A DNA stretch of 64,000 bases from Arthrobacter sp. SDTb3-6 (GTDB taxonomy: Bacteria > Actinomycetota > Actinomycetes > Actinomycetales > Micrococcaceae), in the NCBI RefSeq assembly GCF_013376095.1, contig NZ_JAAMFN010000001.1, positions 62,001 to 126,000 of the forward strand. Direction: 5' to 3'. This document shows, one piece after another, positions 57,839-61,718 of this stretch (position 1 is its first letter; each line of letters opens with the position of its first letter). The notes under the pieces were generated by a model, which worked only from the letters and a program-made list of their open reading frames with translations, did no database searches and was not told where the DNA came from. The translations under genes and the position numbers were made by a program.

Positions 57839-59029
57839 GTGGCGAAGGCAAAGTTCGAGCGGACTAAGCCGCACGTTAACATCGGCACCATCGGTCACGT
57901 TGACCATGGAAAGACGACGTTGACGGCTGCCATTTCCAAGGTGCTGTACGACAAGTACCCCACACTCAACGAGCAGCGTGATTTCAGCTCCATCGACTCG
58001 GCCCCCGAGGAGAAGCAGCGCGGCATCACCATCAACATCTCCCACGTTGAGTACCAGACCGAGAAGCGCCACTACGCACACGTTGACGCTCCCGGCCACG
58101 CTGACTACATCAAGAACATGATCACCGGTGCCGCCCAGATGGACGGCGCAATCCTGGTGGTTGCTGCGACTGACGGCCCGATGGCCCAGACCCGCGAGCA
58201 CGTCCTGCTCGCCCGCCAGGTGGGCGTTCCCTACCTGCTGGTGGCTCTGAACAAGTCCGACATGGTTGATGACGAAGAACTCCTCGACCTGGTCGAAATG
58301 GAAGTTCGCGAACTCCTCTCCTCGCAGGGTTTCGACGGCGACGAGGCACCTGTTGTCCGCGTCTCCGGCCTGAAGGCACTGGAAGGCGACCCCAAGTGGG
58401 TCAAGTCCGTTGAGGACCTGATGGACGCCGTTGACAACAACGTCCCGGACCCCATCCGTGACCGCGACAAGCCGTTCCTGATGCCGGTTGAAGACGTCTT
58501 CACCATCACCGGCCGCGGCACCGTTGTGACGGGCCGCGCCGAGCGTGGAACCCTTGCCCTGAACTCCGAGGTTGAGATCGTCGGCATCCGCCCGATCCAG
58601 AAGACCACGGTCACCGGTATCGAGATGTTCCACAAGCAGCTCGACGAGGCATGGGCCGGCGAGAACTGTGGCCTGCTGCTCCGCGGCATCAAGCGCGAAG
58701 ATGTTGAGCGTGGCCAGGTCATCGTGAAGCCGGGCTCCATCACCCCGCACACGAACTTCGAAGGCAACGTCTACATCCTGGCCAAGGATGAGGGTGGGCG
58801 TCACAACCCGTTCTACTCCAACTACCGCCCGCAGTTCTACTTCCGCACCACGGATGTTACCGGCGTCATCACCCTGCCCGAAGGCACGGAAATGGTCATG
58901 CCTGGCGACAACACCGAAATGTCCGTTGAGCTGATCCAGCCCATCGCCATGGAAGAAGGCCTCGGCTTCGCCATCCGTGAAGGTGGCCGCACCGTTGGTT
59001 CAGGCCGTGTCACCAAGATCATCAAGTAA
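57839..59029 (+). CDS. tuf: Elongation factor Tu
   Basis: A 396-residue GTPase delivering aminoacyl-t[22 protein letters not shown] (P loop), [20 protein letters not shown], and [12 protein letters not shown] (NKxD) are present, with domain 2 [13 protein letters not shown] and the C-terminal [17 protein letters not shown] at 57839 after AGGAGG. It is probably expressed both from the upstream operon and from its own promoter. A terminator follows. Confidence 0.98.
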
Positions 59030-59055
59030 CTTGCACTCCAAGTAACGAAGATCTG

Positions 59056-59095
59056 AAAAAGGAGGGCCCCGGCTTCGGCCGGGCCCTCCTTTTTG
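59056..59095 (+). terminator. Rho-independent terminator after tuf
   Basis: GGAGGGCCC and GGGCCCTCC stem with a GC-rich apical loop containing TTCG, preceded by AAAAA and followed by TTTTT. Ends the str operon before the insertion sequence. Confidence 0.95.
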
Positions 59096-59357
59096 GTACG
59101 CCCTCACCGCCCTCACAGGCCTGCCGGGCGGCTTCCGTGCAGGCGGCCGCCCTTGTGTGTTTCCCTGGACGGCGGTGCCGGCGGCCTGGTGGGCCCATGG
59201 CGACGTCGGCCGTGCCCTTGCGTCGTCCGGCGCACGCGGACACCTTGTCACCAGCCGTGGAACAGGCAGGGAACGCCGTGGGCAGTCCCGTGTTGGCCGG
59301 GAAGTAGTGGAATTTCCCCCCCGTTACCTTTTTAGTAGCCCCATAAAGAGTAAGAAT

Positions 59358-59570
59358 TGGGGTTGTTGGCCTGTCGGTCCCGGCATGATTGAAGCCCCCA
59401 GTCATCAATGATCCGGGGGGTGTTGTCACCGGGATTCGATAGGCGCCAAGGGATCGCTAATGGGGACCGGACCAGCACAATGAATGAACGTGTAGGTCAG
59501 CCGTAACGTGGATGCCGAGCCTTGCCGCCGCAGGACATGCCAACACCAAATTGCACGACACAAATTCTGG
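59358..59570 (+). ncRNA. Candidate bridge RNA of the IS110 element
   Basis: The ~200 nt before the recombinase start fold into two successive stem-loops. The first has arms 59366-59383 and 59429-59449 (TTGG, CCTGTCG, TCCCGG paired with CCGGGA, CGATAGG, CCAA), enclosing a 45-nt internal loop that contains a smaller ATTGA/TCAAT hairpin. The second pairs GACC-GCAC (59470-59478) with GTGT-GGTC (59490-59498). A -10-like TAAGAA/AAGAAT precedes at 59351-59357. IS110-group elements encode such a guide RNA left of the recombinase gene, with two loops specifying target and donor DNA. Guide/target matching was not possible here. Confidence 0.4.
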
Positions 59571-59580
59571 GAGGTTTGCG

Positions 59581-60780
59581 TTGATCAAGGACCATGAACA
59601 AGTCGACATCTTCATTGGTGTTGACGTTGGCAAGAGCAATCACCACGCAGTCGCCATCGACCGCAATGGCAAGAAACTCCTCGACCGGGCACTGCCCCAG
59701 GACGAGGCCAAACTGCGCTCCATCATCAAGGCCGTCGCTGGCAAAGGTACCGTGTTGCTGGTCGTGGACCAGCCCTCGACCATCGGCGCGCTGCCCGTCG
59801 CGGACGCCCAGGCGGAGGGCATCATGGTCGGCTATCTGCCCGGACTGGCGATGCGACGCATCGCCGACCTGCACCCCGGCGAGGCCAAAACGGACGCCCG
59901 AGACGCGGCCATCATTGCCGAAGCCGCCCGCACTCTGCCGCACACGCTGCGCTCCATCGTCCTCGCCGACGAGCAGGCCGCCGAACTGTCCATGCTGTGC
60001 GGTTTCGACGACGACCTGGCCAAGCAGGCCACAGCGACGTCGAACCGGATCCGCGGGCTGCTGACACAGGTCCACCCGGCCCTGGAACGGGTCGTTGGCA
60101 AGCACCTGGACCACCCCGCCATGGCCGAGCTGCTGGTCAAGTACCCGACCCCGGAAAAGCTGCACAGGGCCGGCCAGAACCGTGTCGCCATGCTGCTCTC
60201 CCGCCACGCACCGCGGGCCGGGAAAAGCTGGGCAGCAGAGGTGTTCACCGCCCTGGGCGAGCAGACCGTCGTGGTCGCCGGCACCAATGCCGCCGGCATC
60301 GTCCTGCCCCAGCTCGCAGCCATGCTCAAGCAGCTGCGCGCGGCCCGGGAGGACATCCTCGCCCAGATCGAGGCCCTCGTGGAGGCCCACCCTCTTCACG
60401 AGGTCCTGACGTCCATGCCGGCGGTCGGAGTCAGGACCGAAGCCCGCCTCATCACCGAGGTTGCCGGCAAGGAATTCAAGACCGCCGGGCATCTGGCCTC
60501 CTACGCCGGACTGGCCCCGGTGACGTGGCGCTCCGGGACGTCAATCCGTGGCGACCACCCGTCCAAGAAAGGCAACAAGGCCCTCAAACGGGCGTTCTTC
60601 CTCTCCGCGTTCGCGGCGCTCAAAGACCCGCTCTCACGGGCCTACTACGACCGGAAACGCGCCGAGGGCAAGCGGCACAACCAGGCCCTGATCGCCCTCT
60701 CCCGCAGGCGCTGCGACGTGCTGTTCGCCATGCTCCGCGACGGCACCTTCTACGAGGCACCAGCAGCCAAGACCGCCTAA
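59581..60780 (+). CDS. IS110-family transposase/recombinase (DEDD)
   Basis: A 399-residue recombinase. The RuvC-like domain starts IFIGVDVGKSNHHAVAID (first Asp, D15), continues VLLVVDQPSTIGALPVADA and GEAKTDARDAAIIAEAARTL. A helical middle is followed by the Tnp_20-type domain: SMPAVGVRTEARLITEVAG, FKTAGHLASYAGLAPVTWRS, GDHPSKKGNKALKRAFFLSA. The protein should act with a bridge RNA to recombine the element's circular form into target DNA. TTG at 59581 has GGGAGG 6 nt upstream and gives the usual ~400-residue length; an in-frame upstream ATG at 59512 would run through the RNA region. The reading frame is intact, so the element may be active. Confidence 0.93.
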   Translation: MIKDHEQVDIFIGVDVGKSNHHAVAIDRNGKKLLDRALPQDEAKLRSIIKAVAGKGTVLLVVDQPSTIGALPVADAQAEGIMVGYLPGLAMRRIADLHPGEAKTDARDAAIIAEAARTLPHTLRSIVLADEQAAELSMLCGFDDDLAKQATATSNRIRGLLTQVHPALERVVGKHLDHPAMAELLVKYPTPEKLHRAGQNRVAMLLSRHAPRAGKSWAAEVFTALGEQTVVVAGTNAAGIVLPQLAAMLKQLRAAREDILAQIEALVEAHPLHEVLTSMPAVGVRTEARLITEVAGKEFKTAGHLASYAGLAPVTWRSGTSIRGDHPSKKGNKALKRAFFLSAFAALKDPLSRAYYDRKRAEGKRHNQALIALSRRRCDVLFAMLRDGTFYEAPAAKTA

Positions 60781-60899
60781 ATCCCATCACCCACGAGCTG
60801 GCAGGCACACCTCGCCAGCCAATAACACCTGCCCAGAAACAGAGCCCCAAAAACTTGAAAGAAAATCGGCCCCACCCCTTGACGAAAAACATAGGGACA

Positions 60900-60924
60900 C
60901 CCCCCCCGGGCGGGGGAGGGGGGG
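60900..60924. repeat. C8/G-rich tract at the right flank of the IS110 element
   Basis: Eight C (60900-60907) are followed by GGG, C, GGGGG, A and GGGGGGG up to 60924. The G tracts could form a G-quadruplex, and C8 with the G runs could form a hairpin. It lies at the presumed IS boundary. Confidence 0.6.
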
Positions 60925-61078
60925 TCGGAACGCTTTCGGCCTGCGGCGCCGTGTGGCGGGGTGATTTTGCCCACCAAACCGGGGCATCCGGAGGGGGGCC
61001 GGGCCCGCAGGGCGGTGCCGCGGCGGGAAAGTGCCGGATCGGGCCGTTGCGTGCCCGGCCCCGGGGGCAGGGTGCCGG

Positions 61079-61108
61079 TTGGCGTTTGCCGCCCAATTCC
61101 GGCATACT
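61079..61108 (+). promoter_or_regulatory. Promoter of the S10 ribosomal protein operon
   Basis: TTGGCG (61079-61084) and CATACT (61103-61108), 18-bp spacer; RNA start near 61115. It lies downstream of the IS110 element, so the insertion leaves it intact. The stretch 60925-61078 shows no gene. Confidence 0.5.
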
Positions 61109-61114
61109 TATTGA

Positions 61115-61409
61115 GTTGTTCAAGTGCCTTTTCGTGTCCCGGCCGAGATAATGCTCGGCGCAGGGTCCAAGCTGAGGACCAAACATAACCCACCTTCGCA
61201 AATTATTGCGGGTACGTGCGCGAGTTGATCGCGACACGCCCGACCGCGGGGGTCGGAGCTTCGGCGGATTGAGGAACCCGGAAATGTCCGGATTCAGTTC
61301 GTTGGGAGCGTGGCGGGATCGCCACAGTGCACAGGAAAAGTAAACAGCGTTTACGTCAACAGCATTGCTCGCACAGGATGCTTCGTTACAGGAAGAGAGT
61401 CACGACGCC
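61115..61409 (+). promoter_or_regulatory. Hairpin-rich leader of the S10 operon
   Basis: About 295 nt before rpsJ with a series of small stems: CCGAG/CTCGG (~61141), GGTCC/GGACC (~61164), GCAA/TTGC (~61198), CGACC/GGTCG (~61240), and GGCG/CGCC (~61312). It could be an autoregulatory leader like those recognised by L4 in other bacteria; no known class was matched. Confidence 0.4.
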
Positions 61410-61718
61410 ATGGCGGGACAAAAAATCCGCATCCGGCTGAAGTCATATGACCACGAGGTCATTGATGTTTCAGCCCGGAAGATCGTTGAGACGGTCACGC
61501 GCGCAGGCGCAACGGTAGTCGGCCCCGTGCCGCTGCCCACCGAGAAGAACGTGTACTGCGTTATCCGTTCGCCTCACAAGTACAAGGACAGCCGCGAGCA
61601 CTTTGAAATGCGCACGCACAAGCGTCTGATCGACATCATCGACCCCACGCCCAAGGCGGTGGATTCGCTCATGCGTCTCGACCTGCCGGCCGACGTGAAC
61701 ATCGAAATCAAACTGTAG
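61410..61718 (+). CDS. rpsJ: 30S ribosomal protein S10
   Basis: A 102-residue protein of the 30S head, also NusE in antitermination. [19 protein letters not shown] starts the protein; [20 protein letters not shown] and [16 protein letters not shown] are conserved. ATG at 61410; GGAAGAG lies about 12 nt upstream. First gene of the S10 operon. Confidence 0.97.

What the first reader, a model, noticed from the sequence alone, without database searches (positions are those of the whole stretch)
59358..59570. Candidate bridge RNA in the non-coding left end of an IS110 element
The ~200 nt in front of an intact DEDD recombinase fold into two consecutive stem-loops, the first with a large internal loop holding its own small hairpin. 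IS110-group elements are known to carry a bridge RNA left of the recombinase gene whose two loops read target and donor DNA. This copy looks intact, so both guides could be decoded.
Basis: partly seen in the sequence, partly recalled or inferred. Interest (0 to 1): 0.7.

Follow-up and report, generated by a model that had tools for sequence, protein, structure and literature searches.

The report
Bridge RNA of an IS110 element
The stretch in front of this jumping gene's recombinase looks like a real two-handed guide RNA that reads both the element's own ends and its landing site (runs of C), and the same guide-RNA gene turns out to be a landing site for a second, rival jumping gene of the same kind.

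Summary
Supported. A covariance model of 26 relatives finds the RNA in 80 of 80 related loci (two incomplete); 28 of 44 pairs change on both sides (shuffles 17.1). The donor guides match the element's ends (125 of 136 copies exact at five positions; a changed right-donor base is answered in 9 of 9). The target guides spell a C-run, and the sites are C-runs of about the guides' width; copies whose guides spell ACGCTC sit in ACGCT-type repeats with uninserted copies beside them. Unlike IS621 (CT/CT), donor and target cores differ (CG, CC). The window copy's outer left-guide bases do not match its flank. No transcript was seen. By-product: a second IS110 lineage is inserted at one point inside the target-binding loop of such RNAs (10 copies in 9 genomes or records, one in the window's genome); where readable, its left target guide (CAACACCCCCT) is the antisense of the victim's right-guide region.

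The parts
59322..60899 (+). IS110-family element, 1578 bp, from donor core CG to the last base of the left donor (AGGGACA)
   Evidence: similarity among copies ends here; junction register fixed by uninserted repeats beside L125, L184, L140 and by the RE-LE junction in L275
59315..59321 (+). left target flank (positions 1-7, TCCCCCC)
   Evidence: register
60900..60905 (+). right side of target: core CC and CCCC (positions 8-13), complementary to the six G of the right target guide
   Evidence: C at each of these six positions in 108-128 of 131 unique right flanks, background from position 14
59335..59547 (+). bridge RNA, predicted extent
   Evidence: CM match 59333-59546, 249.6 bits, next best in the window 10.4 (this copy is one of the 26 the model was built from); fold z -2.09; covariation
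59338..59363 (+). 5' hairpin of the bridge RNA
59364..59370 (+). closing helix, 5' arm (pairs with 59539-59545)
   Evidence: helix 2, which takes in this helix and three further pairs: 9 of 10 pairs with changes on both sides
59539..59545 (+). closing helix, 3' arm
59370..59444 (+). target-binding loop (stem plus internal loop)
   Evidence: helix 3: 6 of 8 pairs with changes on both sides
59392..59399 (+). left target guide (positions 1-8, AAGCCCCC)
59415..59420 (+). right target guide (GGGGGG, positions 13-8)
59421..59422 (+). UG after the right target guide, complementary to CA of the left donor (handshake-guide place by analogy with IS621)
   Evidence: sequence; analogy from passages of PMC11208158
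59462..59468 (+). left donor guide (GGGGACC), matches AGGGACA at positions 2-6 plus a possible G-T pair at 1; position 7 mismatches
59470..59498 (+). apical stem-loop of the donor-binding loop
   Evidence: refolded in relatives, weak or absent in several
59503..59508 (+). right donor guide (GUAACG), complementary to CGTTAC 59322-59327
   Evidence: T13 pairs with A in 9 of 9, C13 with G in 156 of 158
59581..60780 (+). IS110 recombinase, 399 aa (TTG start)
60893..60899 (+). left donor (AGGGACA) at the right end
60879..60884 (+). TTGACG, -35 half of a promoter predicted at the circle junction
   Evidence: TTGACG or TTGACA in 122 of 131 copies, TAnnnT 18 nt away across the junction in 117 of 131
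59325..59330 (+). TACCTT, -10 half of the same predicted promoter
59410..59425 (+). site (GATCC/GGGGGGTGTTG) at which a second IS110 lineage is inserted in other copies; intact here

Best explanation
59335-59547 encodes the bridge RNA of an intact IS110-group element. Inferred working: the excised circle joins AGGGACA to CG-TTACC, which sets TTGACG 18 nt from TACCTT and drives the RNA. The first loop pairs its left guide (AAGCCCCC) with the bottom strand and its right guide (GGGGGG) with the top strand of a C-run target. The second loop pairs GGGGACC and GUAACG with the element's own junction. The recombinase then joins the two DNAs at the shared C of position 8. Shown here: conserved structure, guide-to-end and guide-to-site matching across relatives, and the junction register. 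Inferred: transcription, protein binding, order of strand exchange.
For: CM found in 80 of 80 related loci (L107 is cut at a contig end and L126 holds a run of N) and in 111 of 295 genomes of the family. Covariation 28 of 44 pairs. Left donor guide exact at positions 2-6 in 125 of 136 copies, permutation z 15.1, z 5.3 on the 27 distinct pairs (copies of the form [TCG]AGGGGC were read one base further on). Right donor position 13 matched in 165 of 167. Right flanks keep six C after the element in most of 131 copies, background from position 14, equal to the six G of the guide. Copies with guides ACGCTC/CCTGAGCGUG and CCTGAGAGUG sit in ACGCT-CG-CTCA (ACGCC in L184) and ACGCT-CT-CTCA, and uninserted copies of such sequences lie beside them. 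Left guide against left flank z 4.84 over 161 unique flanks. Recombinase model: the top 11 fold matches are IS621 or ISCro4 chains.
Against: In the window copy the left guide matches the flank at positions 4-8 only; positions 1-3 mismatch, and the left donor guide mismatches at position 7. Across the family the outer left-guide positions are matched only slightly above chance (z 2.47, p 0.010; z 1.96, p 0.029 without ten copies whose parsed guide does not end in CCC, two of which, L053 and L071, were simply misread), and a one-base shift control gives a similar z of 2.2-2.4. The right-guide signal (112 copies, z 3.94) disappears without the CGCTC/CTCTC guides (z 0.43), because nearly all other guides are identical. 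On a tree the donor-end changes are few (independent pairs 3 of 4 concordant at each of two positions, p 0.25). The fold of the stated interval alone is no better than shuffles. No empty site for the window copy could be aligned. Rfam has no matching family.
Confidence: 0.93

Rival explanations
1. The conserved leader is a regulatory 5' UTR of the recombinase mRNA (attenuator or translational switch), not a guide.
For: It lies directly upstream of the gene and is structured; [quoted passage not shown]
Against: It does not explain why loop bases follow the element ends or why copies with other loop bases sit at correspondingly different sites.
Confidence: 0.04
2. Structured terminal DNA recognised by the recombinase as DNA (ends), with no RNA function.
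For: Conserved ends are needed by an IS in any case (general knowledge); no transcript was seen here.
Against: Loop bases follow target DNA outside the element and base pairing is kept across 210 nt; a promoter-like pair with nearly constant spacing appears when the ends are joined, none in the linear region.
Confidence: 0.02
3. The C-run at the site is sequence-independent preference of the recombinase, and the C/G-rich loop is coincidental.
For: Almost all guides are C/G runs, so within that class guide and site cannot be told apart (right guide z 0.43).
Against: Copies with ACGCTC-type guides use ACGCTC-type sites; the right-flank C-run has the width of the guide.
Confidence: 0.06

Closest known systems
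IS621 bridge RNA and recombinase (PMC11208160, PMC11208158)
   Same: RNA in the non-coding left end; 5' hairpin, target-binding loop, donor-binding loop; LTG/RTG and LDG/RDG in the same order; promoter across the circle junction; PF01548 plus PF02371 recombinase; IS621 chains are among the top fold matches.
   Different: Recombinase 399 aa versus residues 1-326 in IS621 (passage of PMC11208158); target guides spell a C-run with six G on the right side; donor core CG and target core CC (CG or CT in relatives) instead of CT in both; right donor guide contiguous as read here; second acidic residue appears to be D63 instead of E60 (weak alignment).
ISCro4 recombinase (PDB 9t56)
   Same: Best fold match, C-terminal domain with the serine region aligns.
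   Different: Shorter, 19-20% identity over the aligned columns; its bridge RNA was not compared here.
ISArsp5 of Arthrobacter sp. FB24 plasmid 1, and ISBma3, ISEc20, ISSfl4 (names from record annotation)
   Same: DNA similarity over the element: ISArsp5 72.6%, the others about 68-70% in the rows listed.
   Different: Their guides were not decoded here; the plasmid tables hold no RNA genes, so whether the RNA is annotated could not be judged. Only the ISArsp5 region was opened.
ISAar29 and the other five elements shown in PMC11208160 (names read in a figure legend only)
   Same: IS110-family elements with predicted bridge RNAs.
   Different: Sequences and figures were not available, so kinship is untested.
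IS1111/IS110 seekRNA (PMC11187229, passages read)
   Same: Same idea under another name; that paper separates a long-transposase subgroup (395-455 aa) around IS110, into which this 399-aa protein falls by length.
   Different: IS1111 members usually carry the RNA downstream of the gene and have sub-terminal inverted repeats.

Membership tests
IS110 group (bridge RNA in the left end) | PF01548 plus PF02371 recombinase | tested here: met
   159.7 and 67.2 bits; NF033542 223 bits, cut-off 140
IS110 group (bridge RNA in the left end) | Long non-coding left end, short right end | tested here: met
   259 nt left (59322-59580), 119 nt right (60781-60899); boundaries
IS110 group (bridge RNA in the left end) | 5' hairpin, target loop, donor loop, supported by covariation | tested here: met
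   the apical stem of the donor loop is not covered by the covariation test
IS110 group (bridge RNA in the left end) | Donor guides complementary to the element's ends | tested here: met
   too few independent changes for significance once relatedness is counted
IS110 group (bridge RNA in the left end) | Target guides complementary to the insertion site | tested here: met
   met for the family; for the window copy only left-guide positions 4-8 and right-guide positions 8-13
IS110 group (bridge RNA in the left end) | Promoter formed at the circle junction | tested here: inconclusive
   sequence pattern present in 117 of 131 copies; activity not tested
IS110 group (bridge RNA in the left end) | RNA is expressed and bound by the recombinase | not testable with these tools
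   needs RNA and binding data
IS621-type sub-branch | CT core in both donor and target | tested here: not met
   left junction CG in 168 of 173 as scored (three of the five others read CG by eye; 17 further copies had no readable tip), right junction CC in 120 of 131; L140 target core CT, donor CG
IS621-type sub-branch | Catalytic D-E-D-D | tested here: inconclusive
   D15, D63, D105, D108 invariant in 13 of 13; D63 lies at the E only in a 3.0-bit alignment to ISCro4
IS1111 group | RNA in the right end and long sub-terminal inverted repeats | tested here: not met
   RNA lies in the left end; inverted repeats were not tested
TIGR-Tas | TIGR-Tas endonuclease profile NF052498 | tested here: not met
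   42.3 bits, cut-off 100

The most novel reading that the evidence does not exclude
Bridge-RNA genes are themselves aimed at by other RNA-guided transposons. A second IS110-family lineage (359-aa recombinase) carries a left target guide, CAACACCCCCT, that is the antisense of the conserved right target guide and adjoining bases (GGGGGTGTTG) of the window's IS family, and it inserts at that one point, splitting the rival's bridge RNA within its target-binding loop. The window's own genome holds one such broken copy (contig C62, right side seen).
Probability: 0.8. Interest if true: 0.75.

Novelty: new member of a known kind. Interest (0 to 1): 0.6.

Why it matters
It gives a decoded bridge RNA from the long-recombinase branch of IS110 with natural target reprogramming (C-run versus ACGCT-CG-CTCA) and unequal donor and target cores, which bears on how strict core matching must be in bridge recombination. 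If the second result holds, transposons use guide RNAs to break the guide-RNA genes of rivals, which would be a directly testable form of conflict between mobile elements.

Tried and rejected
Empty site of the window copy: the tuf-rpsJ intergenic regions of G021 and G018 do not align with it well enough; G018 shares only ATTTCCCCCCC and some scattered bases. Empty site for L037 (of 58 genomes only its own has the flank) and L111 (conserved gene end, then unalignable spacer in the eight loci compared). Earlier register ideas in which three or five C belong to the donor junction were dropped. Promoter scan of the linear region 58950-61450: none found. Frame reading of the flanks told nothing in this high-GC DNA. 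The first permutation test (94 flanks) was replaced (161 flanks).

Rows dropped or handled by hand: 7 of 33 aligned left ends were left out of model R1 (L051, L063, L067, L074 interrupted or truncated; L040, L072 near duplicates; L066 divergent). Of 190 copies 183 were used: 168 by regular expression and 15 with guides read off by hand; one false parse (L211b) was removed. L053 and L071 were misread by the expression and stayed. In some searches the left-flank parser required C then G or A before TT, so C at position 8 is by construction; one search repeats the count without that demand. Second lineage: 33 loci were entered and 26 distinct copies scored. L299 (3 of 11) does not match; L300 (3) looks shifted by one base by eye; L308, L318 and L319 (4 each) took a wrong anchor; L290 (0) and L296 (6) were poorly parsed; the homing copies L317, L323 and L059 score 7-8 because of extra C; all were kept in the statistic.

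Papers: PMC11208160, abstract, passages and sections 5, 8, 9, 12; PMC11208158, PMC11187229 and PMC12500396, passages; PMC8450116 and PMC12045711, listing only. Searches in open-access PMC whose listings showed nothing on an IS aimed at a bridge RNA.

Full report
Setting. By ORF content the element lies between tuf (57839-59029) and rpsJ (ORF listed from 61365; its true start may be further in). The element's DNA has matches in 37 of 58 related genomes. In its own genome there are five matches: this one, one 85% identical (C35), one cut and 82% identical (C62), and two under 50 bases. The recombinase ORF gives PF01548 and PF02371 and NF033542, named 'IS110 family RNA-guided transposase'. A model from 13 relatives (mean pLDDT 74.5, pTM 0.51) has IS621 and ISCro4 chains as its 11 best fold matches (TM 0.53-0.55 by query length).

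The observation. Both stem-loops exist, but the stated interval is cut. Folded as given it is no better than shuffles; from 59335 to 59547, with the 5' hairpin complete, it is. I built a covariance model from 26 relatives, the window copy among them. It scores 249.6 bits at 59333-59546 and at most 10.4 elsewhere in the window, and it finds the RNA in 80 of 80 named loci kept by the protein search and in 111 of 295 genomes of the family. On 70 distinct rows, 28 of 44 pairs change on both sides against 17.1 in shuffles, and slid structures collapse. The closing helix and the target-loop stem carry most of this. The C-run/G-run helix inside the first loop should not be counted as plain structure, because its two strands are also the two target guides. 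The apical stem of the donor loop lies outside the 44 pairs and is weak or absent in several relatives.

Donor guides. In 136 copies with both parts readable, the left donor guide equals the left donor (the right end of the element) at positions 2-6 in 125. The classes GGGAC, GAGGC, GGGGC and GAAGC go together (124 of the 126 copies in these classes agree). Permutation gives z 15.1 over all copies and 5.3 over the 27 distinct pairs. The classes change about 9 times (donor) and 7 times (guide) on the tree, and the strict test on independent pairs (3 of 4 concordant at each of two positions) cannot reach significance. At the other end, right-donor position 13 is T in nine copies and the guide has A in all nine; it is C in 158 and the guide has G in 156. 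For the window: GGGGACC (59462-59468) against AGGGACA (60893-60899), with positions 2-6 equal and position 7 not, and GUAACG (59503-59508) against CGTTAC (59322-59327).

Junction register. In L125, L184, L126 and L140 the target guides spell ACGCTC on the left, and on the right CTGAGCG (L125, L184; cut by N in L126) or CTGAGAG (L140). These copies sit in short repeats, and uninserted repeats lie beside them: GAAACGCT-CG-CTCACC, CCAAACGCC-CG-CTCAGC, GACGCT-CG-CTCACC and GACGCT-CT-CTCACTTAATG. Their left junctions read ACGCT-CG-TTACC (ACGCC in L184) and their right junctions AGGGGCA or AGGGACA (AGGGGCC in L184) followed by CG-CTCA, or by CT-CTCA in L140. Hence the donor of the window copy is read as AGGGACA-CG-TTACC; a right-left junction of the same form, AGGGGCA-CG-TTACC, is seen in L275. 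Family-wide the left junction keeps CG (168 of 173 as scored) while the right has CC in 120 of 131. In IS621 the CT core is highly conserved in donor and target and pairing to it is strongly preferred (PMC11208160 section 8; PMC11208158 passages). Here only the C at position 8 is shared for most insertions. I infer that the product keeps donor bases on the left and target bases on the right; the data do not show how.

Target guides. Over 161 unique left flanks C is present at position 5 in 131, 6 in 158 and 7 in 152; over 131 unique right flanks C follows in 128, 121, 125, 118, 121 and 108 at positions 8-13 and then drops to 61 and below. The guide has C at 4-8 and six G for 8-13. Left guide and left flank agree above permutation (z 4.84 over nine positions). 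For the variable outer four bases the excess is small (175 of 644, expected 151.6, p 0.010), and a one-base shift gives a similar value. The right-guide signal (112 copies, z 3.94) rests on the ACGCTC-type copies; without them it is z 0.43. So the C-run part and the reprogrammed copies are convincing; the outer left-guide bases are at best weakly used. In the window the left flank is TCCCCCC and the guide AAGCCCCC: positions 4-8 match, 1-3 do not; the right side matches 6 of 6.

Promoter. Joining the ends puts TTGACG or TTGACA (122 of 131) upstream of a TAnnnT at 18 nt in 117 of 131 copies. This agrees in kind with the junction promoter described for IS621 (PMC11208160 section 5). It is a pattern only.

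A second element aimed at this RNA. Three copies of the window's IS are interrupted at one point in the target-binding loop, between GATCC and GGGGGTGTTG (L051, L063, L059). In L051 the insert is about 1.4 kb and encodes a 359-aa IS110 recombinase on the other strand. Searching 395 genomes for its tip with up to one mismatch gave 27 places in 15 genomes. Of the eight exact tips seven lie in a bridge-RNA loop (L314, L316, L317, L321, L322, L323, L325; L317 and L325 have the same flank) and one does not (L311); of nineteen one-mismatch tips one does (L313). L323 is the L051 copy and L322 the L063 copy. With the cut copy in the window's own genome (L059, right side only) and a named plasmid, pNicSoilB8 of Arthrobacter sp. 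NicSoilB8 (NZ_AP024656.1), that makes 10 copies in 9 genomes or records. Both sides were seen in five (L316, L317, L325, L323, L337), the left side alone in four, the right side alone in one. The host flanks of eight of them are 57-88% identical to each other, so most are probably separate insertions. Where its own left end could be read (L316, L317/L325, L323, L059) the insert carries CAACACCCCCT, and its flank reads CAACACCCCC followed by zero to two more C and then T. Relatives with other guides mostly sit at sites that match those guides: 26 copies, z 9.9; 18 distinct guides, z 9.0; 0 of 5000 permutations reach it; L299 is a clear exception. I read this as guide-directed insertion into a rival's bridge-RNA gene. 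The insertions themselves are shown; that the guide causes them and that they silence the rival are inferences.

Known or new. Bridge RNAs are predicted for 85.7% of IS110s (PMC11208160 section 12), so the window RNA is a new member of a known kind. The listings of my searches in open-access PMC showed no report of C-run guides or of an IS aimed at another's bridge RNA; subscription journals and preprints were not covered, and figures and supplements could not be seen.

Noticed in passing
window 59410-59425; L051 494-1891; L059 (G000:C62); L063; L313; L314; L316; L317; L321; L325; L337 2239-3670: A second IS110-family lineage is inserted at one point inside the target-binding loop of bridge RNAs of the window's IS family and of diverged relatives; where readable, its own left target guide is the antisense of the victim's right target guide region.
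   Followed up: yes
L055 = L115 and L065 = L175: Copies from two genera have the same foreign left tip (TTGACT....CATCAGATGTC) in place of CGTTACC while their right donor guides still read GTAACG.
   Followed up: no
L125, L126, L140, L184: The ACGCT-CG-CTCACC-like repeats that these copies target are short repeats with one or more uninserted copies within about 2 kb in each of the four loci; their nature was not studied.
   Followed up: partly
L106, L138, L165, L275: Four copies are joined on the right to CGTTAC or CGTTAT, that is, to donor-like sequence; in L138 and L275 it looks like the left end of another IS110 element.
   Followed up: partly
window 59581-60780, residue 63 of the 399-aa protein: VVDQP with invariant D in 13 of 13 relatives where ISCro4 has E at the aligned place (IS621 E60); the alignment is weak there (3.0 bits).
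   Followed up: partly
G207 C1 986052-987845 (L195, L276): Two related elements lie head to tail, joined by AGGGACA-CCCC-GTTACC.
   Followed up: partly
window 59068-59093 and 60900-61365: The insertion lies between a terminator-like hairpin after tuf and the region before rpsJ, so it seems not to break a gene.
   Followed up: no
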